Shown: positions 7,576 to 55,623, counted from the first letter of the stretch. The stretch is 64,000 nt of DNA from Acidobacteriota bacterium (GCA_039683095.1 JBDKSB010000001.1:388567-452566); one strand, 5' to 3'. The notes: generated by a model from the letters alone, not told the origin. Translations and numbers: made by a program.

Positions 7576-8304
7576 TCAGGCCGGCCGGAGCCGGCGGTGA
7601 TGCCTGAGCCAGACGCTGGCGATGCCGGCGGCGGCCTGGACCTTGACCTTCAGGCTCATTTTAGACCGGCCGGCCCGGCGTTCGGAGAAACAGATGGGGA
7701 CCTCGCCGATGGCCAGGCCCAGGCGCTCGCAGACATAGGTCATCTCGACCTGGAACAGATAGCCGTGGGAACGGATGCTCCCGAGATCGACGGCCTCGAG
7801 GGTCGATCGCTTCCAGGCCTTGAAACCGGCGGTGGCGTCGAGGGTCCTGAGCCCCAGGAGCGTCCGGGCATAGGCGTTGGCCGACCGGCTCAGCCTGGAT
7901 CGGCCGGCGCTCCAATGGTCGTCCACGCGGCCGCCGGCGATGTAGCGGGAGCCGACCGCAACGTCGCAGTCGGCGAGCTTCGCCAGGAGGCGCGGCACGT
8001 CCGACGGGGAATGGGAGAAATCGGCGTCCATCTGCACGACGGCGTCGGCACCGTCGGCGAGGGCCTGGCGGAAGCCGTCGATATAGGCCAGGCCCAGGCC
8101 GCGCCCGCCCTGGCGGTGGAGGACCGACAGGCGGCCCGGTGATGCGGCAGCCAGCTTGTCCGCCAGGTCGCCCGTGCCGTCGGGCGAGCCGTCGTCGACG
8201 ACGAGAAGACGCAGGCGCGGGACCGGCAGCGCGAGGAGGGCCGAGGTCAGGGCGGACAGGTTGCGGGCCTCATTGTATGTGGGGACTACGATGATCGTAT
8301 TCAT
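7576..8304 (-). CDS. Polyprenyl-phosphate (dolichol-phosphate-like) mannosyltransferase, GT2
   Basis: This 242-residue soluble GT2 enzyme is predicted to transfer a sugar from an NDP-sugar to polyprenyl phosphate at the inner membrane face. It begins with IVVPTYNEARNL, has the VVDDGSPDGT nucleotide-binding motif, and DADFSHSP as the metal-binding DxD-type motif, all typical of DPM1-type enzymes. It lacks the C-terminal membrane anchor of some relatives. An ATG at 8304 follows a G-rich ribosome-binding site, with TATAAT on the minus strand at 8325-8330. It forms an operon with the GT-C-like gene downstream, suggesting a two-step extracytoplasmic glycosylation unit. Confidence 0.88.
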   Translation of the reverse strand: MNTIIVVPTYNEARNLSALTSALLALPVPRLRLLVVDDGSPDGTGDLADKLAAASPGRLSVLHRQGGRGLGLAYIDGFRQALADGADAVVQMDADFSHSPSDVPRLLAKLADCDVAVGSRYIAGGRVDDHWSAGRSRLSRSANAYARTLLGLRTLDATAGFKAWKRSTLEAVDLGSIRSHGYLFQVEMTYVCERLGLAIGEVPICFSERRAGRSKMSLKVKVQAAAGIASVWLRHHRRLRPA

Positions 8305-8467
8305 TGATGCCGCTCCCCCCGGGAATTATACAGGATTGTCCGGTCCGGGGCCATTCGCTTCGATCCCGGATGGCCGCCCGGCCGGGAGAGGCGCGGCGGC
8401 TCCCCCGGCCGTCATTGACAATAGGCCTCCCGAGGGCTATTCATCTAATACGAGGGGAAGGTGGTCC

Positions 8468-9808
8468 ATGCTTGATCCGCACGGGGGGCGGCGACGTCCG
8501 GCCGAGCCGGCCAGCGTCCGGAAAGAGATCCACCGGCCGCAGAGCTTGGTGAAGACGGAGGGGGGCGAGATCCGGGACCTCAGCAAGGAAGCGGAGGCGG
8601 AGATCGCCCGGTTCAAGCAGTACGAGCAGTCGCTGCTCGAGGCCGCCGGGATCTGGTTCGAGGCCTACGACGGGAACGGCCGGCTGGTCGTCTGGAACTC
8701 GGCGGCCGAGGACATCTCGGGCTATGCGCGGGAGGAGGTCCTGGGGAGCCGCAGGAACCTGGACCTGCTCTATCCGGTTCCATCGCGCCGGAGGGCGATC
8801 GCGGACCTGATCTTCGGGAAGAGGACCGGGCGGGCGCCGGTCCGCTTCGAATCGGAGATCGCGGCCAAGGGCGGAGAGACCAAGGTCTTCAGCTGGTACG
8901 CCAGCCGCCTCTGCGGCGACTGGGGACAGCCGCTCGGCACGATCGTACTGGGCCTGGATATCAGCGAGCGGAGGCGGGCGGAAGCCCGCGCCAAGAAGAC
9001 CCGGGAGATCGTCCAGGCGCTGTTCGACGCGATGGCCGAACTGATCTTCATCACGGATACGAAGGGCTTCATCCTGGCGAGCAACGCCGTCGCGGCCAGG
9101 CGCTTGAGGGCTCAGCGATTGGCGGGCCGGCGGATCTTCGATGCCCTGCCGGGCCACCCGCGTATCGGGGTGCTCCAGGCCCATTTCCGGAAAGCCCTGC
9201 GCACCGGCCGGCCCGTCCGCTTCGAGGACAGCTATCTCGGGCTGCGATTCGAGACCACGATCTACCCGATCAGGCCGGCCGACCGGGGGATCGAGCAGGT
9301 CGCGGTCTGCGCCGTCGACGTGACGGCGGAGAAGATCGCCGAGGCCAGGCTGAGCCAGCAGAAGGCCTTGCTCGAGGAGAAGAACGTCGCGCTACGCGAG
9401 ATGATCCGCCAGGTCGAAGGGGAGAAATCGCGGATCGAAGAGCGGGTCGTCAAGAACGTCCACCGGCTCCTGCTGCCCCTGGTCGCCAAGCTGAAGGCCA
9501 AGGGCAGCAGGATCGACCGGACCTACGTAGGCCTGCTCGAAAAGGCCCTCCGGGAGCTGGCCGACGTGCGCAGCGAAATCCTCGGGGCGAGCGACCTGAG
9601 GCTGACCCAGAAGGAGATCGAGGTCGCGAACATGATCGAGAGCGGGCTGACGTCCAAGGAGATCGGACGGCTCCTCGACATCTCCCCCAGGACCGTCGAG
9701 ATCCATCGGGGCAACCTCCGCCGGAAGCTTGGCCTGTCCGGCCGGCGGCAGAGCCTACCGGCGGCCCTGCGCCGGCTGCTGAAGAGCCCGCGGGCTAAAT
9801 ACGTATAA
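8468..9808 (+). CDS. PAS-PAS-coiled coil-LuxR transcriptional regulator
   Basis: This 446-residue sensory regulator has two PAS domains (about residues 50-175 and 185-300; the first ends in LGLDISERRRAEA, the second in VDVTAEKIAEARL), then a long coiled coil. The C-terminal LuxR/FixJ-type helix-turn-helix contains LTQKEIEVANMI and SGLTSKEIGRLLDISPRTVEIHRGNLRRKLG. No histidine-kinase or receiver domain is visible, so signal and DNA binding lie in one chain. The ATG at 8468 is preceded by GGGAAGGTGG, and longer upstream reading is not conserved-looking. The ligand is unknown. The stop codon lies inside a perfect hairpin (9797-9821). Confidence 0.85.
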   Translation: MLDPHGGRRRPAEPASVRKEIHRPQSLVKTEGGEIRDLSKEAEAEIARFKQYEQSLLEAAGIWFEAYDGNGRLVVWNSAAEDISGYAREEVLGSRRNLDLLYPVPSRRRAIADLIFGKRTGRAPVRFESEIAAKGGETKVFSWYASRLCGDWGQPLGTIVLGLDISERRRAEARAKKTREIVQALFDAMAELIFITDTKGFILASNAVAARRLRAQRLAGRRIFDALPGHPRIGVLQAHFRKALRTGRPVRFEDSYLGLRFETTIYPIRPADRGIEQVAVCAVDVTAEKIAEARLSQQKALLEEKNVALREMIRQVEGEKSRIEERVVKNVHRLLLPLVAKLKAKGSRIDRTYVGLLEKALRELADVRSEILGASDLRLTQKEIEVANMIESGLTSKEIGRLLDISPRTVEIHRGNLRRKLGLSGRRQSLPAALRRLLKSPRAKYV

Positions 9809-9821
9809 AGGCTACGTATTT
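9797..9821 (+). terminator. Perfect 9-bp AT-rich hairpin over the stop codon
   Basis: AAATACGTA (9797-9805) and TACGTATTT (9813-9821) are exact reverse complements separated by a 7-nt loop that contains the TAA stop. The stem is AT-rich and has no clear U-tract, so it may end transcription weakly, stabilise the 3' end, or act as a protein-binding inverted repeat. Its role is inferred from position only. Confidence 0.45.
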
Positions 9822-9840
9822 CCTAGGCGTTCAATAGGGG

Positions 9841-9869
9841 TTGAGAAAACCGGCGGAGACGTCTACACT
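9841..9869 (+). promoter_or_regulatory. Predicted sigma-70 promoter of the XRE operon
   Basis: The -35 is TTGAGA (9841-9846) and the -10 is TACACT (9864-9869), with a 17-bp spacer. Transcription would start near 9876, giving a leader of about 107 nt that holds the inverted repeat described at 9908-9969. Confidence 0.5.
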
Positions 9870-9907
9870 CCGCGATGTTCGTTATAAGGCGGACTTTCAG
9901 TCTTAAG

Positions 9908-9969
9908 TGTATTAATAGCCCGTCGCGGGCCCGTTCCGCTTGCTTTTTCGGAGAGGCCTGATTAATACA
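9908..9969. promoter_or_regulatory. Paired inverted-repeat arms flanking a hairpin; candidate XRE operator or leader structure
   Basis: TGTATTAAT (9908-9916) and ATTAATACA (9961-9969) are exact reverse complements, and each contains the palindrome ATTAAT, with centres 50 bp apart. Between them GCCCG-TCG-CGGGC (9918-9930) can fold. The pair lies between the predicted transcription start and the XRE gene. It could be two operator half-sites bound by the XRE protein or a stem in the mRNA leader. Confidence 0.4.
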
Positions 9970-9982
9970 ACGTGGAGTGACC

Positions 9983-10324
9983 ATGGCCGAAGACAAAACG
10001 ATCACCAGCGAAGCCTATCTCAAGGTGATCAGCCAGAACGTCCGGCGCCTGCGGGGCGCGATGAGCCAGGCGGAGTTCGCCCAAAAGGCGGGGATCTCGA
10101 GCTCGACCGTGCATCGGATCGAGAGCCGCAAGAACTTCAACGTCGACAGCCTGCTCAAGATCGCCGTCGCCTGCGGGCTCTATCCCTACGAGATCTGCAT
10201 GAGCGAAGGCGACCGGCGGCGCATCCAAACCGACCCCGGCGTCCTGATGGGGTCTTTGAGAGAAAGCCTCAAGAAGGAGATCCTCGCGGAATTGAAAAGG
10301 GATTCACCTTCCGGGGCCAGATGA
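9983..10324 (+). CDS. XRE-family helix-turn-helix regulator
   Basis: This 113-residue protein is a Cro/C1-type DNA-binding domain with a short tail. The HTH runs through LRGAMSQAEFAQKAGISSSTVHRIES, followed by a helix NVDSLLKIAVACGLYPYEIC. The ATG at 9983 is favoured over GTG at 9977 because GTGGAGTG lies at ribosome-binding distance. Its stop overlaps the ATG of the next gene. As first gene of a three-gene overlapping operon preceded by palindromic sites, it probably autoregulates the operon. The C-terminal 40 residues are charged helix with no recognisable ligand domain. Confidence 0.85.
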   Translation: MAEDKTITSEAYLKVISQNVRRLRGAMSQAEFAQKAGISSSTVHRIESRKNFNVDSLLKIAVACGLYPYEICMSEGDRRRIQTDPGVLMGSLRESLKKEILAELKRDSPSGAR

Positions 10325-10824
10325 GCATCCCCGATTTCCTGGCCGCGGCCGCGGACCTTCATCTGTCCCTTTCGGCGTTGTGCGACACCCTGGCGGGATT
10401 GTCCCGAGACATGCCGGCGGCCGGGCCGCTCCGGGCTTTGTCGCGGGAGAAGGCCCGTCAGGCCAACGCTCTTCGCCGGGCCAACCGGGACCGCGGCACG
10501 CTGGCCTCCTTGATCACGGGGGTCCAGGTCGATGGCGACGCGGTCCGGCGCGGGATCGAGGGGGCCGAGACGCTCCGTCGAACGCTCCTCGGCGGCCGGG
10601 CCTCGCTCGCGGCCGGGCTCCGGGGGCTGTCCGCCCTTGAACGCGATCTGGCGGCGATCCTGGCGGCGGCGCCGGACTTCGCCGATATCTCCTTGAACAG
10701 GGCCATCCTCAACGTCCGGAAGAAGGGGCAAGCCCATATTGCGCTTCTGCAGGGGCTCGTCGACGGGCCGGGAGAAGGCGGCCCCGGAGCTGAGGCGCCG
10801 GGAGGACCGAATGAAGGATCTTGA
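10321..10824 (+). CDS. Hypothetical alpha-helical protein of the XRE operon
   Basis: This 167-residue protein is not recognised. It is almost entirely predicted helix, rich in Ala, Leu and Arg, with heptad-like spacing (LSREKARQANALRRANRDRG and later ALERDLAAILAAA), and ends in a Gly/Pro-rich tail. It has no signal peptide or clear membrane segment. Its ATG overlaps the stop of the XRE gene, and the next gene starts inside its 3' end, so the three products are probably made together. The codon bias matches its neighbours, so it looks like a real gene. Confidence 0.6.
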   Translation: MSIPDFLAAAADLHLSLSALCDTLAGLSRDMPAAGPLRALSREKARQANALRRANRDRGTLASLITGVQVDGDAVRRGIEGAETLRRTLLGGRASLAAGLRGLSALERDLAAILAAAPDFADISLNRAILNVRKKGQAHIALLQGLVDGPGEGGPGAEAPGGPNEGS

Positions 10825-11203
10825 GACGGAATACTGGCTCCATCATCAGATCTCCGAGTTCAAGGCCCGGGCCTGGAGGCAGGCGCTCGAACAGCTGAAG
10901 TTCTATCTGGACCTCCTGAGCATCCGGATCGTCGAACGCTCCGGCCCGGAGAGCGTCTGGATAGAGCTGTTCAAGCAGGCGCGGCCGTATTTCTCGCTCG
11001 AATTCCGGTTCGAAGTCTCCCGTCCCGGCGACGACGGCCGCTCCCCGCACGTCAGGCCGCGGGTCGCGTTTCACATGCAGAACATGGAAATGATCTCTCT
11101 CGAGAAGAGGTTCCCCGCCCTGGATCGGGAGCTGGCCCTGATCGAGAGCCGTGATATCTACGACGTCGTCGAAAGCCTCGTGCGGTTCTATCGCGAGGCC
11201 TGA
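10811..11203 (+). CDS. Hypothetical protein, third gene of the XRE operon
   Basis: This 130-residue soluble protein has a mixed alpha/beta look and no recognised family. It starts with ETEYWLHHQISEFKARAWRQ (helical), has a charged middle (FSLEFRFEVSRPGDDGR) and ends in helices (RDIYDVVESLVRFYREA). The ATG at 10811 overlaps the 3' end of the preceding gene by 14 bp in a different frame. Nothing suggests enzymatic residues. With the XRE gene and the helical protein it forms an orphan three-gene unit whose job is unknown. Confidence 0.6.
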   Translation: MKDLETEYWLHHQISEFKARAWRQALEQLKFYLDLLSIRIVERSGPESVWIELFKQARPYFSLEFRFEVSRPGDDGRSPHVRPRVAFHMQNMEMISLEKRFPALDRELALIESRDIYDVVESLVRFYREA

Positions 11204-11214
11204 CCGTCCTGTCG

Positions 11215-11243
11215 TTGACTCCCTTTCGCCGGGCCACTATACT
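11215..11243 (+). promoter_or_regulatory. Promoter giving a leaderless mRNA for the lysyl-PG synthase gene
   Basis: TTGACT (11215-11220), a 17-bp spacer and TATACT (11238-11243) make a strong sigma-70 pair. Only six bases separate the -10 from the ATG at 11250, so the expected start nucleotide is the A of the start codon. No Shine-Dalgarno sequence can fit. Confidence 0.7.
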
Positions 11244-11249
11244 CGTGAT

Positions 11250-12941
11250 ATGAAGGCCGGGAGGGGGCTTCCGGATCTCTCCGGGCGCGGGACCCGCCGG
11301 CTCCTGGTCAGGATCGCCGGGCTCGTCACCCTGGGGAGCGGCGTTGTCAACATAGTCTCGGCGGCCGGAAAGAGCCTCCCGGCGCGCGTGGCCGTCCTGA
11401 AGGACGTCTTCCCCCTCGAGTTCCTGCACGTCGCCCGCTTCCTCTCCCTGCTCATCGGCATCTCCCTGGCCGTCTCGTCGCTGAACATCTTCAAGAGAAA
11501 GAAGCGGGCCTATATCCTGGTGATGGTCCTCTCGGCGCTGTCCATCATCTTCCACCTGACCAAGGGCCTGGATTACGAGGAGGCGATCGGCTCCCTCGCT
11601 CTCATGGCGATCCTCTTTCTGGCCCGGAGGAATTTCACGGTCAAGAGCGTCGTCCCGGACGTCCGGTCGACGGCGGCCCGGCTGGGGACCGCCCTGGCCG
11701 CGACCCTCCTCTACGGGACGGCCGGCTTCTGGCTCCTGGACAAGCGCGATTTCGGCGTCGACTTCAACGTCGCGGACGGCATCCGCCAAACCCTCGCCGC
11801 TCTTGTCTTCAACAAGGACCCGTCCCTGGTCCCGCGGACGCGCTTCGCGGCCTGGTTCCTGGATTCGCTCGATCTCATCGCCGTCGCGGCCGTCCTCTAT
11901 GCCCTGTATTCCCTGTTCCGGCCCGTTTATTACCGGTTGAGGACCCTGCCCCAAGAGCGGAGCCGGGCGGCCGGGATCCTCGAGGCCCACGGCAAGTCCT
12001 CCCTCGATCCCTTCAAGCTGGCGGCCGACAAATCGTATTTCTTCTCCGCCTCCGGCCGGTCCTTCCTGGCCTACCGGATGGCCGGGACATTCGCCGTCGT
12101 CCTGGCCGATCCCGCCGGTCCCGACGACGAGATCGGGGAGATTATCCGCGCGTTCAGGGACCTTTGCGGGGAGAACGACTGGCGGCTGGCCTTCTACCAG
12201 GTCCTGCCGGACTTCCTGCCCCTCTACCGGGCCGCGGGCTTCAAGAAGATGAAGGTCGGCGACGACGCGATCGTCGAGCTGGCCGAGTTCAACCTGGAGG
12301 GCAAGCGGATGAAGCACATCCGCCACGCCGTGAACCAGCTCGACAAGACCGGGATCAGCGCGGTCCGCTACGATCCCCCCGTCGCCGACGGGGTCCTGGC
12401 GGGGATCCGGGAGGTCTCGGACGACTGGCTGGGCATCCCCGGACGGCGGGAACGCGGCTTCACGGTCGGCGTCTTCTCCGAGGAGGACATCCGCCGGACG
12501 CCCGTCTTCGCCGCGGTCCAACCGGACGGGCGCATCCTGGCCTTCATGAACATCATCCGCTCCTACGCCCCCGGCGAGACGACCATCGACCTGATGCGGC
12601 ACCGCCGCGACGCCCCGGCCGGCGTCATGGACTTCCTGTTCGTCCGTCTCTTCGAGGCGCAGAAGGCCCGGGGCTTCACCCGGTTCAGCCTCGGCCTGGC
12701 CCCCATGTCGGGCTTCCGCGAAGGCGAGGACGCCGGGGCGGAGGAGCGGGCCGTCCAGTACTTCCTGCAGCGTTCGAATTTCCTGTTCAGCTACAGCGGC
12801 CTCCTGGAATACAAGGCCAAGTTCGCGACCCGGTGGGAGCCCCGCTACGCGATCTACCGCAACGTCCTCGAGCTGCCCCGCTTCGCGGTCGCGCTGATCG
12901 GGGTCTCGGGGCTGAAGGACGAGGGGGCCGGCGGTGATTAG
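11250..12941 (+). CDS. Phosphatidylglycerol lysyltransferase-like membrane protein (MprF synthase half, DUF2156)
   Basis: This 563-residue protein has about six membrane helices in the first 240 residues, then a large cytoplasmic domain (about 250-550) of the tandem GNAT-like DUF2156 type that transfers an aminoacyl group from tRNA to phosphatidylglycerol. Matching features include SRAAGILEAHGKSSLDPFKLAADKSYFF (start of the synthase domain), the ARHxxN-like segment in MKHIRHAVNQLDKTG, and FSLGLAPMSGF. It corresponds to the C-terminal half of MprF/LpiA, with the flippase half encoded by the next gene. The amino acid used (Lys, Ala or other) cannot be read from sequence. The -10 element directly before the ATG predicts leaderless translation. 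Confidence 0.82.
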   Translation: MKAGRGLPDLSGRGTRRLLVRIAGLVTLGSGVVNIVSAAGKSLPARVAVLKDVFPLEFLHVARFLSLLIGISLAVSSLNIFKRKKRAYILVMVLSALSIIFHLTKGLDYEEAIGSLALMAILFLARRNFTVKSVVPDVRSTAARLGTALAATLLYGTAGFWLLDKRDFGVDFNVADGIRQTLAALVFNKDPSLVPRTRFAAWFLDSLDLIAVAAVLYALYSLFRPVYYRLRTLPQERSRAAGILEAHGKSSLDPFKLAADKSYFFSASGRSFLAYRMAGTFAVVLADPAGPDDEIGEIIRAFRDLCGENDWRLAFYQVLPDFLPLYRAAGFKKMKVGDDAIVELAEFNLEGKRMKHIRHAVNQLDKTGISAVRYDPPVADGVLAGIREVSDDWLGIPGRRERGFTVGVFSEEDIRRTPVFAAVQPDGRILAFMNIIRSYAPGETTIDLMRHRRDAPAGVMDFLFVRLFEAQKARGFTRFSLGLAPMSGFREGEDAGAEERAVQYFLQRSNFLFSYSGLLEYKAKFATRWEPRYAIYRNVLELPRFAVALIGVSGLKDEGAGGD

Positions 12942-13941
12942 CGCGAGAGTCTCCCGGGTCCTGCGCCAGGCGGCCGCCTACATCATCGCCGCGGCCTGCC
13001 TGGTCTGGGTCTTCCACGACGTCGACGCGTCCAGATTCCTGGCCAGCGTCACGGGGCTCGACTGGGGCTGGGTCGCCCTGGCCGTCGTCCTCGATACCGT
13101 GAGCTACGTCTGCCAGGGGATCCGCTGGCGGCTCCTGCTCGGGCCGCTAGGCCGGATCTCCTCCCTGCGGGCCACCGAGGCGGTCTATTCCGGCCTGTTC
13201 GTCAACGAGGTCCTGCCGTTCCATCTGGGGGAGGTCGCCCGGGCCTACCCGGTCTCGCGCTGGCTGAGCGCGCCGTTCGTCGCCGTCATACCCTCGATGG
13301 CCCTGGAGCGGCTCTTCGACGGCATCTGGCTGGCGGCCGGGATCGGGATCACGGCCGTCTTCGTCCCGCTCCCCCGCGATCTCGTCCGGGCCGGCGACAT
13401 CTTCGGCCTGGCCATCCTGGCCCTGACCGCGCTCTTCCTCTTCCTGCTGTTCCGGAAAGCGCGCCAGGCTCGGGCCGGCGCACCGGACCGGGCCCGGCGC
13501 CCGGGGCCGGTCCGGTGGATCGCCGGGAACGTCCGGGCGATCGAGACCGGGCTCCGTTCGATCGGCCTCTCTCGGTCCTCGATCGCGGCCTTCTTCCTGT
13601 CCTTCCTCCTCGTGGCGCTTCAGGCCCTGTCCTTCTGGCTGATCATGGCGGCGGCCGGCTTCGGCCTGTCGTTCCTGATGGGCACGGCCGTCTTCCTCAT
13701 CGTCCGGTTCGGGACCGTCCTGCCCGGCGCCCCCGGCAACCTTGGCCTCTACCAGGTGTTCTGCGTGCTCGGATTGGGCCTGTTCGGGGTGGACAAATCG
13801 GCCGCCGCGGGCTTTTCGGTCGTGGTCTTCGTCCTGCTTTCCGTCCCTCTGTGGGTGCTCGGGTTCTTGGCCCTGGGCCGCACGGGGATGACCTTCGCCG
13901 CGATCAGGTCCAAGATGGGCGAAGAGGAGGGGTCCGCATGA
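12934..13941 (+). CDS. LPG_synthase_TM-family flippase (MprF flippase half, UPF0104)
   Basis: This 335-residue integral membrane protein has about eight helices and belongs to the family that forms the N-terminal flippase of MprF, which moves aminoacylated phosphatidylglycerol to the outer leaflet. Typical blocks are GLFVNEVLPFHLGEVARAY, PSMALERLFDG and the glycine-rich PGAPGNLGLYQ. The start is GTG at 12934, overlapping the synthase gene by 8 bp. The stop overlaps the next ATG. Synthase and flippase are therefore separate polypeptides here, in an order opposite to the fused protein. A dedicated flippase for another phospholipid is the alternative. Confidence 0.85.
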   Translation: MISARVSRVLRQAAAYIIAAACLVWVFHDVDASRFLASVTGLDWGWVALAVVLDTVSYVCQGIRWRLLLGPLGRISSLRATEAVYSGLFVNEVLPFHLGEVARAYPVSRWLSAPFVAVIPSMALERLFDGIWLAAGIGITAVFVPLPRDLVRAGDIFGLAILALTALFLFLLFRKARQARAGAPDRARRPGPVRWIAGNVRAIETGLRSIGLSRSSIAAFFLSFLLVALQALSFWLIMAAAGFGLSFLMGTAVFLIVRFGTVLPGAPGNLGLYQVFCVLGLGLFGVDKSAAAGFSVVVFVLLSVPLWVLGFLALGRTGMTFAAIRSKMGEEEGSA

Positions 13942-14690
13942 GCCGGAACCGATTCGCGGCCGCCGTTCTCCTGGCCGGCTGGATCATCATGCCCGGGCCT
14001 GTCGCGGCCGCCGGATCGAGCGGCCCGGCCGGACAGGCCCTGACAGCTCCCGCGGCCCAGCGCCTCGACGACCTGCCGCTCGTCGAGGTGCCGGCCCAGG
14101 GCGGCGGGCGCGGCCTCCTGGCGGTCATGCTCACGGGGGACGGCGGCTGGGCGGTCGCCGACAAGGGTCTGGCGAAGGATCTGGCGGCAGCCGGCATCCC
14201 GGTCGTCGGCTTCAACTCGCTCAAGTACTTCTGGAAGCAGCGGACGCCCGAGGAAGCCGCGGCGGACCTGCAGCGCGTCCTCGAGCGCTACCTGCCGGCC
14301 TGGGGCAAGAAACAGGCCATCCTGATCGGCTATTCCCTCGGCGCGGACGTCCTGCCCTTCATGATGAACAGGATGTCCGAGGACGTCCAGGCCGAGGTCC
14401 GAATGGTCGTCCTCATGAGCGCGAGCCGGAGCGCCGAGTTCGAGTTCCACGTCCTCGACTGGCTGGGCCGGTCGGGAGGGAAGCGGTCCCTGCCGACCAT
14501 CCCCGAGATCGGGCGGATCAGGCCCGGCGTCGCGGTTCTCTGCGTCCACGGCGAGAAAGACAGCGGTGCGATCTGCGGCGAGCTCGATCCGGGCCGGGTC
14601 CGGTCGGCGGCCATCCCCGGCGGCCACCGCGTCGGCGGCGGCTACGGGCCGGTCGCAGCGGCCATCCTGGCCGCGCTCGACGAGCGCTGA
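13938..14690 (+). CDS. AcvB/VirJ-like periplasmic serine hydrolase (probable aminoacyl-PG hydrolase)
   Basis: This 250-residue alpha/beta-hydrolase has an N-terminal signal peptide (hydrophobic to about residue 25). The family signatures LTGDGGWAVADKGLAKDLA and GFNSLKYFWKQRTPEEAA are typical of AcvB/VirJ. The nucleophile is Ser133 in GYSLGAD, with candidate Asp in VHGEKDSG and His in PGGHRVGG. In Agrobacterium AcvB hydrolyses lysyl-phosphatidylglycerol and is encoded with the lysyl-PG synthase LpiA. The same pairing here, with overlapping genes, supports a synthesis-flipping-degradation unit acting on aminoacyl-PG at the outer face of the inner membrane. Confidence 0.83.
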   Translation: MSRNRFAAAVLLAGWIIMPGPVAAAGSSGPAGQALTAPAAQRLDDLPLVEVPAQGGGRGLLAVMLTGDGGWAVADKGLAKDLAAAGIPVVGFNSLKYFWKQRTPEEAAADLQRVLERYLPAWGKKQAILIGYSLGADVLPFMMNRMSEDVQAEVRMVVLMSASRSAEFEFHVLDWLGRSGGKRSLPTIPEIGRIRPGVAVLCVHGEKDSGAICGELDPGRVRSAAIPGGHRVGGGYGPVAAAILAALDER

Positions 14691-14697
14691 GCGGCGG

Positions 14698-16689
14698 CTA
14701 GCGGGCCCGGGCCCTGGCCGCGTACTCCCGCGACCTGGCCTCGTCGCCGACCCGCCGGTAGAGCTCGGCCAGAAGGCCCCAGCCGAGCGCCCGGCCCTCC
14801 GGGTCGAGATCGAGGTCGAGAGCCTTGAGGGTCAGGCCGATGGCCTCGTCATAGCGCTCGCCGCGGACGAGGTCGATCCGGGCCGCGTAGAGGTAGGGCA
14901 GGGCGAACTTCGGATCGACCTCCAGGCACTTGGCGAGAGCCTGCCTGGCCTTCTCGAGCTCCCCGACCGTCTGATACACCCGGGCCAGGTTGTAGAAGGC
15001 CTTGATGTGCCCCGGCGTCGTCTCGGTCTCGCGGATATATTCGGCCTCCGCCTCGGCCGGCCGGCCCTGCTTCTCGGCGATCCAGCCGAGCTTGTAGTGG
15101 GCGTTCATCAGCGCCGGGTTGAGGTCGAGGGCCCGGCGCAGGCTTTCCCCGGCCCGGACGAGGTCGTTCCTGGCGATGTAGCAGGCCCCGAGGATGTCGT
15201 AGGCGGCGGAAGTCCCTTCGGGGTCCCGGGCGACGATCTCCCCGACGGCCCGGATCGCGCCGTCGGCGTCGCCGCCGGCCTCCATCTCCCTGGCCCGGGC
15301 CAGATCGTTGTAGACGCCGATCCTGTCCTTCGGGTCGGGCAGGGTCTTGCCCCTGAGCCCGGCCGGGTCGGCGAACGATCCGACGTAGCCGAGGGCGGCC
15401 AGCTTTTCCCGCGTCTCGGCGTCGACGCCGGCCGCGGCGGCGTCGATCGCGCCGCGGCTCGAGTCGCGGATGAGCGCCTCGGCCGCGGCCCGCAGCTCCG
15501 CCGCTTCGCCCGGCCGCGCGCCGGCCAAGTTCGTCCTCTCGCCCGGGTCGGCGTCGAGATCGTAGAGCTCGGGAACCGGCGCCAGGATGATCTTGCGTCG
15601 GCCGTCCAGGACCGTCCGCAGCTCCGACCAGCCGTAGTGGAAGCGGGGATAATAGGTCTCGCTGTAGACGGGCCGGGGCCGCGGCGCGGCCCGGCCGAGG
15701 AGCGCCGGCAAAAGGCTCGAGCCCTGCACTTCGGCCGGGACGCGGAGGCCGGCCAGCCCGGCGACCGTAGGCAGGACGTCGACCAGCCCGACCGCGCCGG
15801 GAACGATCCTGCCCCGGAACTCCGGGAAGGGCGCGGCGACGATGAGCGGGACGCGGATGGCCGCGTCGTAGACGAAGAAGCCGTGCGTCCGCTCCCCGTG
15901 TTCGCCCAGGCTCTCGCCGTGGTCGCCGGCGATCACGACGAGCGATCTCCCCAGCAGCCCGTTCGCCTCGAGCGTGCGCCAGAGCCGCCCGAGCTGGGCA
16001 TCGACGAAGGCGATCGCGCCGAAATACAGCCGGCCGGCGTATTCGCGGTCATACGGCGGCGGGGGCTGGTAAGGCGCGTGCGGGTCGTAGATGTGGATCC
16101 AGGCGAAGAACTTCTTGCCCTTGCGAGACTCGATCCAGGGCAGGGCGGCGTCCAGGACCTCGTTGGCGGGACGCCGGACCGTGTCGAACGAGGCGGCCGC
16201 GAACCTGCTCAGCGCGAAATCGTCGAAGTAGGTCCCGAAGCCCTGGTTCAGGCCCCACTTCGAATCGAGCACCCAGGCTCCGAGAAAGGCCCCTGTCTCG
16301 TAGCCCTTCTCCCGGAAGAGCTCGGCCATCGTCGCCAGCTTCTGCGGCACGAGGAAGCTGCCGTTGTCGCGGACGCCGTGATAGAGCGGCAGCGTGCCGG
16401 TCATGAGCGTGACGTGGGAGGGGAGGGTCAGGGGCGTCTGGGCGTAGCATCGCTCGAACCGGGCGCCGCGGGCGGCGAACCGGTCGAGAACCGGGGTCCG
16501 GACATCCCGGCCCCCGTAGCAGGACAGGGTGTCGGCCCGGGTCGTGTCGAGGGTCACGAGGATGACGTTGAGATCGCGGGACGTTCCGGCGGGATCGAAG
16601 GCCGGCGGCCGGCGGAGGAGCAGGAGGGCGGCCCCGGCCGCGGCGATGACGCCGGCCGCGGCGACGATCGAACGAGCGTGGCCCTTCAT
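14698..16689 (-). CDS. Sulfatase-like (alkaline-phosphatase superfamily) protein with C-terminal TPR repeats
   Basis: This 663-residue protein has a hydrophobic N-terminal anchor or signal at residues 8-25, the sulfatase-fold domain to about 400, then four or more TPR units (for example AYDILGACYIARNDLVRAGE and AFYNLARVYQTVGELEKARQ). Metal sites are visible: VTLDTTRAD near the N-terminus and AGDHGESLGEHGE. At the nucleophile position of the C/S-x-P-S-R motif stands Thr88 (TLPSH), so it is not a formylglycine sulfatase. The superfamily's phosphoethanolamine and phosphoglycerol transferases use Thr, so a lipid or glycan phospho-transfer or phosphodiesterase role is plausible. It converges on the aminoacyl-PG operon. 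Confidence 0.8.
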   Translation of the reverse strand: MKGHARSIVAAAGVIAAAGAALLLLRRPPAFDPAGTSRDLNVILVTLDTTRADTLSCYGGRDVRTPVLDRFAARGARFERCYAQTPLTLPSHVTLMTGTLPLYHGVRDNGSFLVPQKLATMAELFREKGYETGAFLGAWVLDSKWGLNQGFGTYFDDFALSRFAAASFDTVRRPANEVLDAALPWIESRKGKKFFAWIHIYDPHAPYQPPPPYDREYAGRLYFGAIAFVDAQLGRLWRTLEANGLLGRSLVVIAGDHGESLGEHGERTHGFFVYDAAIRVPLIVAAPFPEFRGRIVPGAVGLVDVLPTVAGLAGLRVPAEVQGSSLLPALLGRAAPRPRPVYSETYYPRFHYGWSELRTVLDGRRKIILAPVPELYDLDADPGERTNLAGARPGEAAELRAAAEALIRDSSRGAIDAAAAGVDAETREKLAALGYVGSFADPAGLRGKTLPDPKDRIGVYNDLARAREMEAGGDADGAIRAVGEIVARDPEGTSAAYDILGACYIARNDLVRAGESLRRALDLNPALMNAHYKLGWIAEKQGRPAEAEAEYIRETETTPGHIKAFYNLARVYQTVGELEKARQALAKCLEVDPKFALPYLYAARIDLVRGERYDEAIGLTLKALDLDLDPEGRALGWGLLAELYRRVGDEARSREYAARARAR

Positions 16690-16746
16690 TTTCCCGGGGA
16701 GATTCTACCATAAAATCACGGCTGGACGGCGTCCCGGGCGCCGCGC

Positions 16747-20124: not shown

Positions 20125-21933
20125 ATGAAAAACAAGAATATCAGTCATTTAGGGGCAGAAGCCGCTGGCCGGAAGGCGGACGCCGGGACGGCCGCGAGCT
20201 GCGTCATCATCGCCGCCGGCCGCGGCAGCCGGCTGGCCGGCCGGGCGCCGAGCAAGCCGCTGCTCGAGATCGCCGGAAAGGCCCTCATCGACCGGGCTAT
20301 CGAGGCCGCCCGGACCGCGGGGATCAGCCGGTTCGTCGTCGTCACCGGCTACGCCGGCGACGACGTCGAGCGCCATCTCCGGGCCCGGGCGGAGGCGGAA
20401 GGCCTCTCGATCGCCACCGTCCGCAATGACGAGTGGGAAAAGGAGAACGGGCTCTCGGTCCTCAAGGCCAGGCCCCTGGCCGGGGACCGGTTCCTGCTGG
20501 TCATGGCCGACCACCTTTTCGACCCGGCCCTGCTCGAGGGGCTGCGGCGCCGGCCGATCGCCGGGGACGAGGTCATCCTGGCGGTGGACGCCCGGACCGG
20601 GGCGAATCCCTATGTCGACCTGGCGGACGTCACCCGGGTCCGGGTCGTCGACGGGCGCATCGCCGCCATCGGCAAGAACATCCCCGAGTACGACGTCTTC
20701 GATACGGGCGCCTTTCTCTGCACCCCGGCCCTGTTCGAGGCGCTCGAGACGAGCCAGGCCCGGGGCGATTATTCCCTGTCCGGCGGCATCCGCGTTCTGG
20801 CCGAGCGTGGCAAGGCCCTGGCCTGGGACACGGGCGGGCTCTTCTGGCTCGATGTCGATGACGAACCTGCCCTGGCCAAGGCCGAGCAGGCCATTGCCGC
20901 GGGGCTCGCCGGCCCGGCGGCCCGCCGCCCGGCCGGGTGGCTCCGGAAGCGGCTTCGCCCGCTGCTCAGCGGGGCCGGGCTGTTGCTGCTCGTCTTCCTG
21001 GTGATGAAGATCGGGGCCGGCGCGATCCTCCGGCAGATGACCCGCTTCGGGCCCTGGTTCCTGTTCATCACTGGCCTCGCTTTCCTGTGGATCTTCCTCC
21101 AGGCCTGCGCCTGGTCCATCATCCAGGCTTCCCATTTCCGGCGGGTCCCGCTCCTGCAGCTCTTCCGGACCAAGATCATCAGCGACTCCCTGAACACGCT
21201 GCTGCCTTCGGCCAACATCGGCGGCGACGCCGCGCGGGCCTTCCTGATCAAGTCGCACGCCCCGCTGAAGGAAGGCATCCCGGGCGTGCTGGTCGACAAG
21301 ACGGTCGAAGCCTTCGCCGCGGCCCTCTTCCTGGCCACCGGGTTCCTCCTCGGCCTGACCGTGGTGCGGCTGCCGGCATGGATGGAGATCGTGGCCGCGA
21401 TCTGCCTGGCCGGCACGGTGGCCGGCATCGCCCTGTTCATCGTCCTCCAGCTGAAGGGCGCGCTCTGGACCATCGACCGGGTGGCCCGGATCTTCCCCAG
21501 CGTCCGGCGGCTGGCGGCGGGCCGCGAGCACCATATCCGCGATCTTGACGAGAACATCGGCACTGTCTACAAGCACCTGGACTTCCGGACCGTGGCGGCG
21601 ACGGCGCTCCATTACATCGCCCGGGCCCTGGGGGCGGTCGAGGTTTACACGATCATGAAGGTCCTGGGCGCCCCGCTATCGGCCGTCCAGGCCCTGTTCG
21701 CCTCGGCCGGCGTGACCATCATCAACACGGCCTTCTTCATCGTTCCCGGCCAGTTCGGGGTGCAGGAAAGCGCCCATATCCTGGTCGTCCGGATCCTGGG
21801 CTTCCCGGCGGCGCTGGGCCTGAGCCTCGGCGTCATCCGCCGCATCCGCAAGCTGGCCACGTCCGCCGTGGGGCTCGTCCTCTACGCGACGCACCCGAAG
21901 CCGCCGGCGCCCCCGAACGGCCGGCCGGGCTGA
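20125..21933 (+). CDS. Fusion of a CTP:inositol-1-phosphate cytidylyltransferase-like domain and an LPG_synthase_TM flippase-like domain
   Basis: This 602-residue two-domain protein has a nucleotidyltransferase domain at about residues 24-265: VIIAAGRGSRLAG with Lys44 in APSKPL, then RNDEWEKENGLSVLKA, FLLVMADHLFDP, AIGKNIPEYDVFDTGAFLC and WLDVDDEP. These blocks match the IPCT part of archaeal and thermophile IPCT-DIPPS enzymes that make CDP-inositol. From about residue 270 on there are some eight membrane helices of the same family as the MprF flippase (SLNTLLPSANIGGDAARAFL and FIVPGQFGVQES). It is divergent from the CDP-alcohol phosphotransferase and ino1 genes. The fusion suggests that the inositol product is a lipid moved across the membrane. 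No clear ribosome-binding site precedes the ATG. Confidence 0.82.
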   Translation: MKNKNISHLGAEAAGRKADAGTAASCVIIAAGRGSRLAGRAPSKPLLEIAGKALIDRAIEAARTAGISRFVVVTGYAGDDVERHLRARAEAEGLSIATVRNDEWEKENGLSVLKARPLAGDRFLLVMADHLFDPALLEGLRRRPIAGDEVILAVDARTGANPYVDLADVTRVRVVDGRIAAIGKNIPEYDVFDTGAFLCTPALFEALETSQARGDYSLSGGIRVLAERGKALAWDTGGLFWLDVDDEPALAKAEQAIAAGLAGPAARRPAGWLRKRLRPLLSGAGLLLLVFLVMKIGAGAILRQMTRFGPWFLFITGLAFLWIFLQACAWSIIQASHFRRVPLLQLFRTKIISDSLNTLLPSANIGGDAARAFLIKSHAPLKEGIPGVLVDKTVEAFAAALFLATGFLLGLTVVRLPAWMEIVAAICLAGTVAGIALFIVLQLKGALWTIDRVARIFPSVRRLAAGREHHIRDLDENIGTVYKHLDFRTVAATALHYIARALGAVEVYTIMKVLGAPLSAVQALFASAGVTIINTAFFIVPGQFGVQESAHILVVRILGFPAALGLSLGVIRRIRKLATSAVGLVLYATHPKPPAPPNGRPG

Positions 21934-51775: not shown

Positions 51776-52443
51776 GGCATGCGCAGGCGGTAGCCGGCCC
51801 CCCGGACGGTCTGGATCAGGCTCGGCTGGCCCTCCCGGTCGATCTTCTTGCGGAGGCGCCGGACGTAGACGTCGATGATGTTCGAGAGGCCGTCGAACTC
51901 GTAGTCCCAGACGCTCTCGCCGAGCATGGTCCGCGTGACCACGGCGTTGGGGCGGCGCATGAAGTACTCGAGGATGGCGAATTCCTTGGCGGTCAGGTCG
52001 AGGCAGGCGCCGTCGTGCCAGACCTCCCGGCTCTGGGGTTCGAGGGTCAGGTCCCCGACCTGGACCTTCTGGGCCTTGGGCAGGACCTCGCGCCGGAGCA
52101 GGGCCCGCAGCCGGGCCAGGAGCTCGGAGAAGGCGAAGGGCTTGACCAGGTAATCGTCGGCGCCGGTGTCGAGCCCGGCGACCTTGTCCTCGACGCTGTC
52201 CTTGGCGGTGAGCATGAGGATCGGCGTGTGGACGTTCTTGGCCCGGAGGTCGCGGCAGACGGCCAGGCCATCCTTCTTGGGCAGCATGATGTCGAGGACG
52301 ATCAGGTCGAAAGGCGTGGTCTCGGCCATGAACTCGGCTTCTTCGCCGTCGTAGGCATTGTCGACGGCATAACCTTCCTCGAGGAGGCCCCTCTTGATGA
52401 TCCCCGCCAAGCGCCTCGAATCTTCGACCACCAGGACTCGCAT
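51772..52443 (-). CDS. OmpR/PhoB-type response regulator
   Basis: This 223-residue regulator has a receiver domain with the acidic pocket VVEDS, phospho-acceptor Asp near residue 51 in [13 protein letters not shown], and Lys in [11 protein letters not shown]. The winged-helix output domain contains [15 protein letters not shown] and [13 protein letters not shown] with the final [11 protein letters not shown]. The ATG at 52443 is preferred over a GTG three codons upstream because GCAGGAG lies eight bases before it. It is encoded with the sensor kinase and transcribed away from an AT-rich intergenic patch. Confidence 0.94.
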
Positions 52444-52489
52444 GCTCTTCACTCCTGCCGCTGCTTAGAGACGCTCCCAGCATACTCCT

Positions 52490-52570
52490 TTCATGATGAA
52501 TATATTATGAAAAACATATGAATTCTTCAATATCAATTTTAATCTAAAATTAATGTTTTATTAATTGGCG
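52490..52570. promoter_or_regulatory. AT-rich divergent intergenic patch
   Basis: About 80 bp of strongly AT-rich DNA in a GC-rich setting, with small palindromes (CATATG, GAATTC, TCATGA) and repeated ATTAAT/TTAATT words. It separates the two-component genes (minus) from the ECF-LuxR gene (plus). It could hold both promoters with UP-element-like sequence or bind a nucleoid protein. No clear -35/-10 pair can be picked. Confidence 0.4.
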
Positions 52571-52659
52571 ATTCATCTCTTGCTGGTACCCTGGACGTCC
52601 GGGGCACTGATACCGGCTCCCCCGGCCGGCGCCCCGCAATAACCATTCGGAGGAGCGGC

Positions 52660-53271
52660 ATGAGCGACGTCCTGGAGAAACACAATTCCCTGATGGAGAG
52701 GATCATCCGGGATTACGGCGCCATGATAACCTTGACGGTCAACAAGGCCCTCGGCGGCGCGCCCCGCGTCGAGGACATCGTGGCCGAGGTCCATTTCGCC
52801 GTCTTCACAACCCTGCGGAAGCTCGGCGAGGGCTGGGCGCCGCCGCGGTCGTTCGTCTCGACCATCGTCAAGAACAAGGTCAACGATTTTGTCTGGCAGC
52901 ACTACTGGGACAGCGACGACATCGACACGCTGAAGAAGCGCCAGGCCGAACAGATCTGCCAGAAGGAAGAGGTCATGGCCCAGATCCACACGCTGACCCA
53001 GTCGGAATTCAAGGTCTTCCGCCTGCTCGGGCTCGGGCTGACCAACCAGGAGATCGCCGAGACCCTCTTCATCTCGCCCCTGACGGTCCGGACCCACGTC
53101 AAGAGGATCCACGCCAAGTGCGACATCAAGGGCCGGGCCAAGCTGGCCCTGGCCGCCTATCAGACCTGCTACCACGAAGCGCCGGAAGGCCGGGGCCTCG
53201 ACGCGGCGTCGGCCTGCGCCGATCCCGGCAGCTTCGTGCGCCCGAGCCTGACCGCCCACCAGGCCAACTGA
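52660..53271 (+). CDS. ECF-sigma-like regulator with LuxR-type region 4
   Basis: This 203-residue protein has an N-terminal half resembling sigma-70 region 2: IIRDYGAMITLTVNKALG, RVEDIVAEVHFAVFTTLRKL and FVSTIVKNKVNDFVW have the DxxxExF and KNKxxDF pattern of ECF factors. The C-terminal half (about 115-180) is a LuxR/GerE helix-turn-helix: LTQSEFKVFRLLGLGLTNQEIAETLFISPLTVRTHVKRIHAKCDI. The ATG follows GGAGGAG. It may be an ECF-derived activator rather than a true sigma factor. No anti-sigma gene is adjacent. A 30-residue unstructured tail ends the protein. Confidence 0.75.
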   Translation: MSDVLEKHNSLMERIIRDYGAMITLTVNKALGGAPRVEDIVAEVHFAVFTTLRKLGEGWAPPRSFVSTIVKNKVNDFVWQHYWDSDDIDTLKKRQAEQICQKEEVMAQIHTLTQSEFKVFRLLGLGLTNQEIAETLFISPLTVRTHVKRIHAKCDIKGRAKLALAAYQTCYHEAPEGRGLDAASACADPGSFVRPSLTAHQAN

Positions 53272-53347
53272 GCGAACAGGGATCCCCGGTTCCCTCTGCG
53301 GGCTAGGAAGCCAAAGGGTTCAGTGTGCCGACTGAATTGCGAATCCC

Positions 53348-53364
53348 CGACCTGCGGACTTGAA
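53348..53364. repeat. Left imperfect copy of the 17-bp tRNA-derived repeat bounding the AT-rich island
   Basis: CGACCTGCGGACTTGAA matches CGACCTGCGGATTCGAA at 55595-55611 in 15 of 17 positions and in the same orientation. It lies where sequence composition changes from GC-rich to AT-rich. It is a possible attachment-site core. Confidence 0.45.
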
Positions 53365-53416
53365 CTCCGTTGCTGATCATTGTTGTATTGCGCCCAATTA
53401 TTGTCCCTACAATAAG

Positions 53417-54037
53417 TCAGCGATGATGACGGAATGGCGAACCGGGATGGCGATTCGGTCTTCGGTCATATTGAAGGCAACCCTTAGTCGATTCCTGTTT
53501 TTTGATTGATTGATATCCGTTCGTCGCCACATTCCCGGTCCCTGACAAGAGAACGTAGGCTACAGCCAGAAGTGCCAACGTGGGAATACCTAGTAAGACA
53601 ATTGACAACGGAACGCGTATGAGCTTCCAGATTGGGGGGCCGACGTCAGTTTTAGGCGACGTCCTGCTAGTACCGAAGCTCCAACAAGAAGTTTCATAAG
53701 CATCGCCAACGGCACCTATTCTTTCATACTCGCTTCTCAACACTTTGAGGCTAAAAATCCCAAGAATTAGTCCCAAAAGAGGGAATGCGAGCGAAAACCA
53801 ATTTAACATCGAAATGATGCTATTCTTTATGACTGGTAATGTACTGATGATCGCGGTTACAGAACTAACTAGGTAGAAGGCATTCCAAAAGTGAACGTGA
53901 CGATATTTCCATTGTTCCCAGAGGAGTTTAGCCTCATCAATCGGCATCGGTTTTAGGTAGGGCGCCGAAGCTGAATCCGAAAGGGGCGTATCCTGGGGAT
54001 TCTTGCGCTTAGAATTGAAAATATCGCCGATACCCAT
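53417..54037 (-). CDS. Unknown three-helix membrane protein in the AT-rich island
   Basis: This 206-residue protein is not recognised. It has a charged cytoplasmic N-terminus and a motif W-K-Y-R-H-x-x-F-W-N-A-F just before the first helix (YLVSSVTAIISTLPVI). A second helix is WFSLAFPLLGLILGIFSL and a third is VPLSIVLLGIPTLALLAVAYVL, with a soluble basic tail. The ATG is preceded by GGGAGGGG. Base and codon use are visibly more AT-rich than in surrounding genes, indicating transfer. Similar small membrane proteins occur as accessory or island genes. No function can be assigned. Confidence 0.65.
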   Translation of the reverse strand: MGIGDIFNSKRKNPQDTPLSDSASAPYLKPMPIDEAKLLWEQWKYRHVHFWNAFYLVSSVTAIISTLPVIKNSIISMLNWFSLAFPLLGLILGIFSLKVLRSEYERIGAVGDAYETSCWSFGTSRTSPKTDVGPPIWKLIRVPLSIVLLGIPTLALLAVAYVLLSGTGNVATNGYQSIKKQESTKGCLQYDRRPNRHPGSPFRHHR

Positions 54038-54141
54038 CGGCCCCTCCCTAAAAATTCTTATAAAGCCAATTGAGAGCTAGTGTCAACTCATTGTTCTCGC
54101 CAATTACATTAGTGACACCGTGGATTGAGGATGAAGTCTAG

Positions 54142-55194
54142 GTCAAGCCCGATGACCCCCTCGATGTTTTCCTGTGGAGAGATGGAAAACCTCGCCTCGC
54201 GGAAAAGAGCAACGTAATGGAATTACTGAGAGAAATCAACAAAAGAGAAATTAATAAATTGCTATCTCCAAAGATAAAGCGAATAGAGACCCGTCGCATC
54301 CAAATGAGGAAACTTAGGGATGACCTTGAGGGAATGTATATTACTTATAAGTACGATAAAAGCCCATTAACGGTGGGGGAAATCGTCGATTGGGATGTAA
54401 TAAATGATGATTTTATTCGAGACGCTGCCCGGGACATCGTAAAACACAAAAAAGAATTTGAGGAGATAAACAAGAATTTTTTAAACGGTATTCATAAAGG
54501 GAATACTGTTTTTATTGCAAATGATTATCGTCCCAGAACCGAAGAATATGTGCTGAGATATTCCGCTCCCAGACTGACCTTCAAAGAACAATTCTTCAAT
54601 TTGCTTCCTATAATTCCGGGAGCCGGCGAAAAGATCATTCTGGTTAACGGAGGCGGTTCGTTCTTATCGGAACTTGAAGAACGAATATATTATCCTACCA
54701 TGGTATATGAGAACCTATCTCGGGACTTTGTTTTTCTTAAGATCCGCCCCGAATATGCAGAATGTTATAGCCTAAAATACTTAATAGCCTACTTCAAATC
54801 TGTAGCATTACTTTGGTATAGCTATAGTATTTATGATTCGGTTAATCTCTACAAAGCTAATATTCTAACCAAATTGCCCGCCCCGCCAGAATGCGACAAG
54901 AAGACTGAAGTAGAGAAGTTAGTATCCGAGATCCTTGATTTAGAGGGGAAGCACTTAAGAGATGAAGAAGAATTGAAGTTCGTTATAAGCAAACAGGGCC
55001 ATGATATTGATAAGACAACAAAAAGGTTAACCGAAAAGATAGGTTATCACAATGATCTGGTTGGCGAAAAACAGCTAGCACTGGATGATATATTCTTCCA
55101 ATTGTTTAATATTGACAAAGAGGAGATTAGCTTGATGTGCAGGGTTTTAAAGGGTAAACACATATTTACTAACGAAAAGCTAACCGGCCCGTAA
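54142..55194 (+). pseudogene. C-terminal fragment of an N6-adenine DNA methyltransferase / type IIG-like enzyme (specificity domain)
   Basis: The open frame from 54142 to 55194 codes for about 350 residues. The first usable ATG (54217, 325 residues) is internal, because coding-like sequence (VKPDDPLDVFLWRDGKPRLA) runs upstream to an in-frame TAG at 54139-54141. The middle and end resemble the TaqI-type target-recognition and C-terminal region of adenine methyltransferases: YLIAYFKSVALLWYS, NILTKLPAPP, EVEKLVSEILDLEGK and a final LALDDIFFQLFNIDKEEI. The catalytic NPPY domain is absent. It is AT-rich and therefore probably acquired. Either a decayed restriction-modification gene or a stand-alone specificity protein started at 54217 is possible. 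Confidence 0.6.
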
Positions 55195-55570
55195 TGGCTC
55201 CTATCCTTGAAGGGCAGCATTATTTCCGAGCCAAATTGGGGCAGAGGATTAGCGGCACTGCGAAGCAACCCCGGATAGTACCGAGCTGAAAACGATAGGC
55301 AGTTTTTTTGTGACGTAAGCACTAAATTGGAAGAGGAAATCCCCTAAGGTCATAGCTAAGTTTGTAGTTTTTTTTTGCCCCAACTGAATAGCGCAAGGCC
55401 TCCCTTCCCAAGGTGAACCTCGACTGTCTATGATGTTTCCCATTGTGCAGTGGTTGTGCTGTAGAGCGGTTAAAATTGGCATAAAAGAGTAGAAAAGCGC
55501 GACTGCGCGAGGGCCTGTGCAGAATGTGAAAAACCGCAATCTTCTCGGGAAATATGGGGAAAAAGGAGAG
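55195..55570. other. Non-coding AT-rich island end
   Basis: No gene is supported in these 376 bases. Two long T-runs on the plus strand (about 55301-55308 and 55366-55375) could help end transcription from the methyltransferase fragment, but no good stem precedes them. The composition is that of the island, not the host. Confidence 0.5.
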
Positions 55571-55611
55571 CGCGCCTGGCCCGATTCGAACGGGCGACCT
55601 GCGGATTCGAA
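55571..55611 (-). repeat. 3' half of a tRNA-Arg(UCG)-like gene; probable attachment-site remnant
   Basis: On the minus strand the sequence reads as anticodon loop CTTCGAA (anticodon TCG), stem half TCCGC, variable AGGTC, T-arm GCCCG-TTCGAAT-CGGGC and then acceptor-like CAGGCGCG. The 5' half is absent: the sequence immediately joins the 3' end of the MetF-like gene. Elements that integrate at tRNA 3' ends leave such partial copies. Confidence 0.65.
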
Positions 55612-55623
55612 GGGCCCGGCGGC

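What the first reader, a model, noticed from the sequence alone, without database searches (positions are those of the whole stretch)
11250..14690. Split MprF: synthase, flippase and AcvB-type hydrolase in one overlapping operon
The usual bifunctional MprF is here two proteins, in the order synthase then flippase, followed by an exported AcvB-like serine hydrolase. AcvB of Agrobacterium is known to degrade lysyl-PG. Synthesis, flipping and removal would be encoded together, allowing rapid adjustment of membrane charge in a lineage where this has not commonly been described.
Basis: partly seen in the sequence, partly recalled or inferred. Interest (0 to 1): 0.6.

Follow-up and report, generated by a model that had tools for sequence, protein, structure and literature searches.

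The report
Three-gene aminoacyl-lipid operon with swapped flippase
This acidobacterium carries three overlapping genes that probably attach an amino acid to a membrane lipid, move the lipid across the membrane and later remove the amino acid; the parts are known, but here they are separate proteins and the mover is not the usual one.

Summary
Three co-directional, overlapping ORFs lie at 11250-14690: an MprF-type aminoacyl-PG synthase with six TM segments and the known essential residues (one Glu is Asp); a membrane protein of PF03706; and an exported VirJ/AcvB-type hydrolase with AcvB's catalytic residues and membrane loop. The interpretation needs one correction. The membrane protein is not the detached flippase half of MprF. 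Its predicted fold matches that domain (Z about 19), but it belongs to the stand-alone TIGR00374/UPF0104 branch and lacks MprF's Asp234, Glu280-Arg304 and YRxxY residues. Synthase and membrane protein form a conserved module: all 13 loci with the closest synthases carry an orthologue of the membrane protein downstream, and these synthases form one clade. Most also carry a VirJ-like hydrolase, usually a divergent type without AcvB's lysine pocket; the window has the canonical type. Fused MprF beside AcvB is common elsewhere in the phylum, so coupled synthesis and removal is not new there. I read the locus as a new variant of the LpiA/AcvB system: synthesis, translocation and hydrolysis of a (probably lysyl-) phosphatidylglycerol by separate proteins. 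No activity has been shown.

The parts
11250..12941 (+). aminoacyl-phosphatidylglycerol synthase, 563 aa: six TM segments plus C-terminal LPG_synthase_C domain (equivalent of MprF lacking its first eight TM segments)
12934..13941 (+). stand-alone flippase-like membrane protein (PF03706/TIGR00374), 335 aa, predicted MprF flippase fold, without MprF's signature residues
13938..14690 (+). exported single-domain VirJ/AcvB-type aminoacyl-PG hydrolase, 250 aa; Ser133, His230, Asp68, Asp137, Glu167, Trp175-Leu176
11215..11243 (+). sigma-70-like promoter TTGACT-17-TATACT ending 6 nt before the ATG at 11250; would give a leaderless or nearly leaderless transcript (inference)
   Evidence: 1 found; 0.1 expected in shuffles
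8292..16718 (.). 8.4-kb segment holding the operon that is absent from a sister species (G002), where the same flanks are 1.2 kb apart

Best explanation
The three genes form one transcription unit for the turnover of an aminoacylated phospholipid. The synthase takes an amino acid, most likely lysine, from aminoacyl-tRNA and puts it on phosphatidylglycerol in the inner leaflet. The separate membrane protein, a TIGR00374 relative of MprF's flippase domain recruited in place of it, lets the product reach the outer leaflet. The exported VirJ-type serine hydrolase cuts the ester there and gives back phosphatidylglycerol and the free amino acid. Shown here: gene structure, family membership, conservation of the residues essential in MprF synthase and AcvB, the fold match of the membrane protein (predicted model), and conserved linkage of synthase and membrane protein in Acidobacteriota. 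Inferred: all three activities, the amino acid, the lipid acceptor, cooperation between the proteins, and the benefit (membrane charge, acid or antimicrobial-peptide tolerance).
For: The synthase matches MprF structures from residue 17 to near its C-terminus and keeps the residues essential in S. aureus MprF (K547, K621, D731, R734, K806 and the important D546, E685; E624 is Asp). Six TM segments plus the C-domain suffice for Lys-PG synthesis, and the two halves of MprF work in trans (PMC2774229). The membrane protein's model matches MprF chains at Z 17.9-19.9 over about 300 residues, with the next fold at Z 5.2. Hydrolase: AcvB S336, H433, D271, D340 and the membrane loop W378-L379 are S133, H230, D68, D137, W175-L176; D370 is Glu. 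PMC13197417 ties an acidic residue at 370 to lysyl- rather than alanyl-PG, and VirJ, single-domain like this one, hydrolyses Lys-PG (PMC13135905). All 13 loci with the nearest synthases have the membrane gene downstream, and none of the 67 other loci does; the 15 synthases so linked form one clade, SH-aLRT 99; 11 of the 13 also have a VirJ-related hydrolase gene.
Against: The membrane protein lacks the lipid-binding Asp234, the Glu280-Arg304 pair and the YRxxY motif of MprF, although mutation of the salt bridge does not abolish transport by P. aeruginosa MprF (PMC11980842). Orthologues of it occur twice in G040 without an MprF-type synthase nearby, so it may act on other lipids. AcvB's Glu384, placed near the epsilon-amino group in docking, is Gly here. 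Neither the amino acid nor the acceptor can be read from the sequence; an MprF-like protein (LysX) makes lysyl-diacylglycerol (PMC10580965, abstract).
Confidence: 0.7

Rival explanations
1. The synthase and hydrolase form the aminoacyl-PG cycle, but the membrane protein moves another lipid (bulk phospholipid, polyprenyl or glycolipid) and the aminoacyl lipid crosses by another route.
For: It belongs to the stand-alone TIGR00374/UPF0104 branch; orthologues stand alone in G040 and, more distantly, in G331 and G237:C9; UPF0104 proteins are predicted to serve other lipids, such as GpgF and HexF; the genome has three other PF03706 proteins over the cut-off.
Against: Strict linkage to this synthase clade in 13 of 13 loci and 8-nt and 4-nt gene overlaps here; MprF flippase fold.
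Confidence: 0.2
2. The operon acts on a different aminoacyl lipid: another amino acid (alanine, arginine, ornithine) or another acceptor (cardiolipin, diacylglycerol), with a hydrolase matched to it.
For: In most related loci the hydrolase is a divergent type that keeps Ser, His and D271 but has Gly, Ala, Ser or Asn at D340 and usually a hydrophobic residue at D370, hence not AcvB's lysine pocket, next to the same kind of synthase; LysX makes lysyl-diacylglycerol (PMC10580965).
Against: The window's own hydrolase keeps the acidic pocket (D68, D137, E167), and the best-scoring single-domain structure for the synthase is a Lys-PG synthase (2.7e-58, against 2.7e-46 for an Ala-PG synthase), which is only weak evidence.
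Confidence: 0.2
3. A true split of one MprF gene into its two halves.
For: The synthase begins where MprF's second half begins; the membrane protein has the same fold as the first half; natural splits exist, for example Hydrococcus L098.
Against: No NF033480 match for the membrane protein; signature residues absent in it and in its relatives; fused MprFs of the same phylum keep them.
Confidence: 0.07

Closest known systems
LpiA/AcvB operon of Agrobacterium and Rhizobium
   Same: synthase and flippase function followed by an exported Lys-PG hydrolase in one operon; same catalytic residues
   Different: LpiA is one fused protein and AcvB has two domains; here synthase and flippase-like protein are separate, the latter from another branch, and the hydrolase has one domain
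VirJ of octopine Ti plasmids (Lys-PG hydrolase, PMC13135905)
   Same: single-domain, exported, about 250 aa, same family PF06057
   Different: VirJ is encoded on the Ti plasmid away from a synthase; here it is in the synthase operon
C. perfringens MprF1 (natural synthase without flippase domain, PMC11980842)
   Same: six-TM synthase without its own flippase domain
   Different: the other homologue there (MprF2) carries the flippase domain; here the candidate flippase is an adjacent TIGR00374 protein
HexSDF (C. difficile) and GpgSDF (P. aeruginosa)
   Same: lipid head-group enzymes with a stand-alone UPF0104 or MprF-like flippase in one operon
   Different: they make amino-sugar lipids; here the head group is an amino acid and a hydrolase removes it
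Cyanobacterial synthase-then-flippase fusions (L092, L095, L112) and the Hydrococcus split pair (L098)
   Same: same order, synthase before flippase
   Different: their flippase part keeps the PGGLGxFE and YRxxY motifs of MprF where checked, and no VirJ-type gene was seen near them

Membership tests
Bifunctional MprF (NF033480) | synthase and flippase domains in one protein, score at least 600 bits | tested here: not met
   synthase 439 bits over positions 318-836 only; membrane protein no match
MprF synthase part (PF09924 LPG_synthase_C with six TM) | PF09924 above cut-off, six TM segments, essential Lys/Asp/Arg/Glu residues | tested here: met
   259 bits against 27.5; 6 TM; K261, K335, D447, R450, K522, E401, D260 kept, E624 is D338
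MprF synthase part (PF09924 LPG_synthase_C with six TM) | transfer of an amino acid from tRNA to PG | not testable with these tools
   needs lipid analysis
MprF flippase domain | Glu280-Arg304 pair, YRxxY motif and Asp/Glu234 (RtMprF numbering) | tested here: not met
   PGNLGLYQ and no YRxxY; position of Asp234 not acidic by alignment
MprF flippase domain | fold of the MprF flippase domain | tested here: met
   AlphaFold2 model pLDDT 86.8; Z 17.9-19.9, rmsd 3.6-4.2, 291-303 residues against six MprF chains, next Z 5.2
TIGR00374 / UPF0104 flippase-like proteins | score above the curated cut-off of 43.2 bits | tested here: met
   66.8 bits
AcvB/VirJ family lysyl-PG hydrolase (PF06057) | VirJ domain above cut-off with catalytic Ser and His | tested here: met
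   191.6 bits against 22; S133 and H230
AcvB/VirJ family lysyl-PG hydrolase (PF06057) | head-group residues D271, D340, D370 and membrane loop W378-L379 | tested here: met
   D68, D137, E167 (conservative change), W175-L176
AcvB/VirJ family lysyl-PG hydrolase (PF06057) | Ser269, named as a key residue of AcvB | tested here: inconclusive
   Thr66 here, and Thr in two other canonical relatives
AcvB/VirJ family lysyl-PG hydrolase (PF06057) | hydrolysis of Lys-PG | not testable with these tools
   needs an enzyme assay
AcvB (two-domain) | N-terminal second alpha/beta domain | tested here: not met
   250 aa, one domain

The most novel reading that the evidence does not exclude
A group of Acidobacteriota has replaced MprF's flippase domain by a separate, dedicated TIGR00374 translocase that accepts aminoacyl lipids without the MprF gate residues, and has paired this synthase-translocase core with interchangeable hydrolases, one type with the lysine pocket and one without, so that different members make and recycle different aminoacyl lipids.
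Probability: 0.3. Interest if true: 0.6.

Novelty: new variant of a known kind. Interest (0 to 1): 0.42.

Why it matters
If true, it is a natural test of which parts of MprF are needed for lipid translocation: a protein with the fold but without the proposed gate residues would do the work. Synthase, translocator and hydrolase can be expressed and removed one by one without cutting domains apart. The two hydrolase types beside one kind of synthase make amino-acid specificity in the AcvB family testable, and turnover of membrane charge is extended to a little-studied phylum.

Tried and rejected
A phmmer search of the PDB with the membrane protein found nothing at E up to 1; the link to MprF came from Pfam and the predicted fold. 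The sulfatase next door was no use as a synteny anchor because the genus has many copies; the inositol-phosphate-synthase-like gene worked. Foreign origin of the segment by base composition: GC 0.683 against 0.68-0.70 in the flanks and similar third-position GC, so composition gives no sign of recent import; gain in this lineage and loss in the sister are not distinguished. The correlation of synthase and membrane-protein identities (Mantel r 0.89) shows shared inheritance, not shared function. Searches for VirJ and for the synthase in the 60 nearest genomes found only G012 (73% identical partial synthase at a contig end) and a lone synthase of another clade in G048. A divergent hydrolase (L070) had no clear relative among solved structures.

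Full report
Observation. The first pair overlaps by 8 nt and the second by 4 nt (ATGA), the latter with GAGGAGGGG just upstream. The only sigma-70-like site found in 10700-14800 is TTGACT-17-TATACT at 11215-11243 (10 of 12; 0.1 expected by shuffling); its second hexamer ends 6 nt before the first ATG, so the transcript may be leaderless (inference). The next gene, a sulfatase-TPR protein, runs the other way and ends at 14698. The sequence thus supports one three-gene transcription unit.

Synthase. The 563-aa product matches PF09924, NF033480 (MprF) from position 318 to 836, and solved MprF chains from residue 17 on. It has six predicted TM segments. In S. aureus, MprF without its first eight TM segments still makes Lys-PG fully, and the two halves work when expressed as separate proteins (PMC2774229). 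Residues whose exchange abolished or reduced Lys-PG synthesis there are present here: D260, K261, K335, E401, D447, R450, K522; E624 is D338, an acidic change shared by most of the clade. These positions were transferred through motif context and spacing and checked on an alignment with a Bacillus MprF. I expect the synthase to be active; its amino acid cannot be read from the sequence.

Membrane protein. It belongs to PF03706, but in NCBIfam it matches only TIGR00374 and not MprF. In MprF, Asp234, Glu280-Arg304 and YRxxY line the proposed lipid path (PMC8131360). Fused MprFs of Acidobacteriota have PGGLGxxE/D and, in nearly all, YRxxY; the window protein has PGNLGLYQ and no YRxxY, and its relatives lack them too. 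An AlphaFold2 model (pLDDT 86.8) matches six MprF chains at Z 17.9-19.9 over about 300 residues, while the best other fold has Z 5.2. So it has the MprF flippase fold without being the MprF flippase half. The salt bridge is not required for scrambling by P. aeruginosa MprF (PMC11980842), hence its absence does not exclude transport. Stand-alone UPF0104 or MprF-like proteins are predicted translocators in operons for other cationic lipids (GpgF, HexF).

Hydrolase. The 250-aa product is a single VirJ domain with an N-terminal hydrophobic export signal, E 9.1e-39 to AcvB. Against AcvB, Ser336, His433, Asp271, Asp340 and Trp378-Leu379 are kept; Asp370 is Glu, Ser269 is Thr, Glu384 is Gly (roles of the residues in PMC13197417, and for Ser269 PMC13135905). 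PMC13197417 notes that Asp370 is Thr or Ser in homologues from Ala-PG makers, so the acidic residue here favours lysine. The single-domain VirJ has been shown to hydrolyse Lys-PG (PMC13135905).

Conservation. A scan of named genomes with a synthase alignment returned 80 loci. The 13 with the nearest synthases (41-58% identity) are from Acidobacteriota or from MAGs without a phylum in their title, and all 13 carry an orthologue of the membrane protein downstream; none of the 67 others does by phmmer at 1e-3. In a tree of 81 synthases, the 15 linked to this protein form one side of a branch with SH-aLRT 99. Identities of synthase and membrane protein correlate. A VirJ-related gene is present in 11 of the 13 (one just under the Pfam cut-off, one apparently frame-broken; L069 ends soon after the membrane gene and L077 shows none). 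In most it lies between the other two genes and is of a divergent type: Ser, His and Asp271 kept, Asp340 replaced by Gly, Ala, Ser or Asn, Asp370 by a hydrophobic residue. L073 and the window have the canonical type after the membrane gene. This suggests that hydrolases have been exchanged within one synthase-flippase module. Against strict dependence, G040 has two orthologues of the membrane protein, no match to the window synthase and only a PF09924 hit elsewhere in the genome.

Setting. The genome lies in Acidobacteriota: G152, drawn from the same phylum, is the same record as L067 ('Acidobacteria bacterium') by gene content and contig length. In the nearest 60 genomes the trio occurs only here, with a 73% identical partial synthase in G012 of the same genus. 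In the sister species G002 the flanks of 8292-16718 are 1.2 kb apart: the operon is in a segment that differs between close relatives. Fused MprF beside AcvB/VirJ is frequent elsewhere in the phylum (13 of 19 regions examined), so coupling of synthesis and removal is ordinary; the separate, exchanged flippase is the unusual part.

Verdict. A new variant of the LpiA/AcvB type of system. Activities are inferred from families, residues and fold; none is shown for these proteins.

Noticed in passing
L213:5376-8345 (G252) and L214:6262-8466 (G369): A DedA (VTT) domain fused to an MprF-type synthase (735 aa), in G252 followed directly by a divergent VirJ-like hydrolase. DedA-MprF fusions are known (PMC11980842); the hydrolase beside one I have not seen described.
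   Followed up: partly
L092:5941-8580, L095:2398-5100, L112:1579-4218; also L107, L118 by length and position: Cyanobacterial proteins of about 880-900 aa with synthase first and flippase domain second, the reverse of MprF; the flippase part keeps MprF motifs where checked.
   Followed up: partly
L043, L044, L045, L046, L054, L073, L145 and others (two-domain AcvB homologues): The N-terminal domain of acidobacterial AcvB homologues keeps GDGGW, GYSSG and a C-terminal GHG motif and so looks catalytic, whereas Agrobacterium AcvB has SDANGW at the first motif; the role of that domain is unknown.
   Followed up: partly
window 8292-16718: Segment absent from sister species G002, holding a PAS/LuxR-like regulator ORF, an XRE-like ORF, the operon and a sulfatase-TPR gene.
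   Followed up: partly
window 14698-16689: Sulfatase-TPR protein of a family with many paralogues in this genus, up to eight strong matches in one genome.
   Followed up: no
window 52001-56000: GC content drops to 0.52 in a window otherwise near 0.69; possible island or different genes.
   Followed up: no
window 20968-21873: Another PF03706 protein, part of a long ORF, one of three others over the cut-off in this genome.
   Followed up: no
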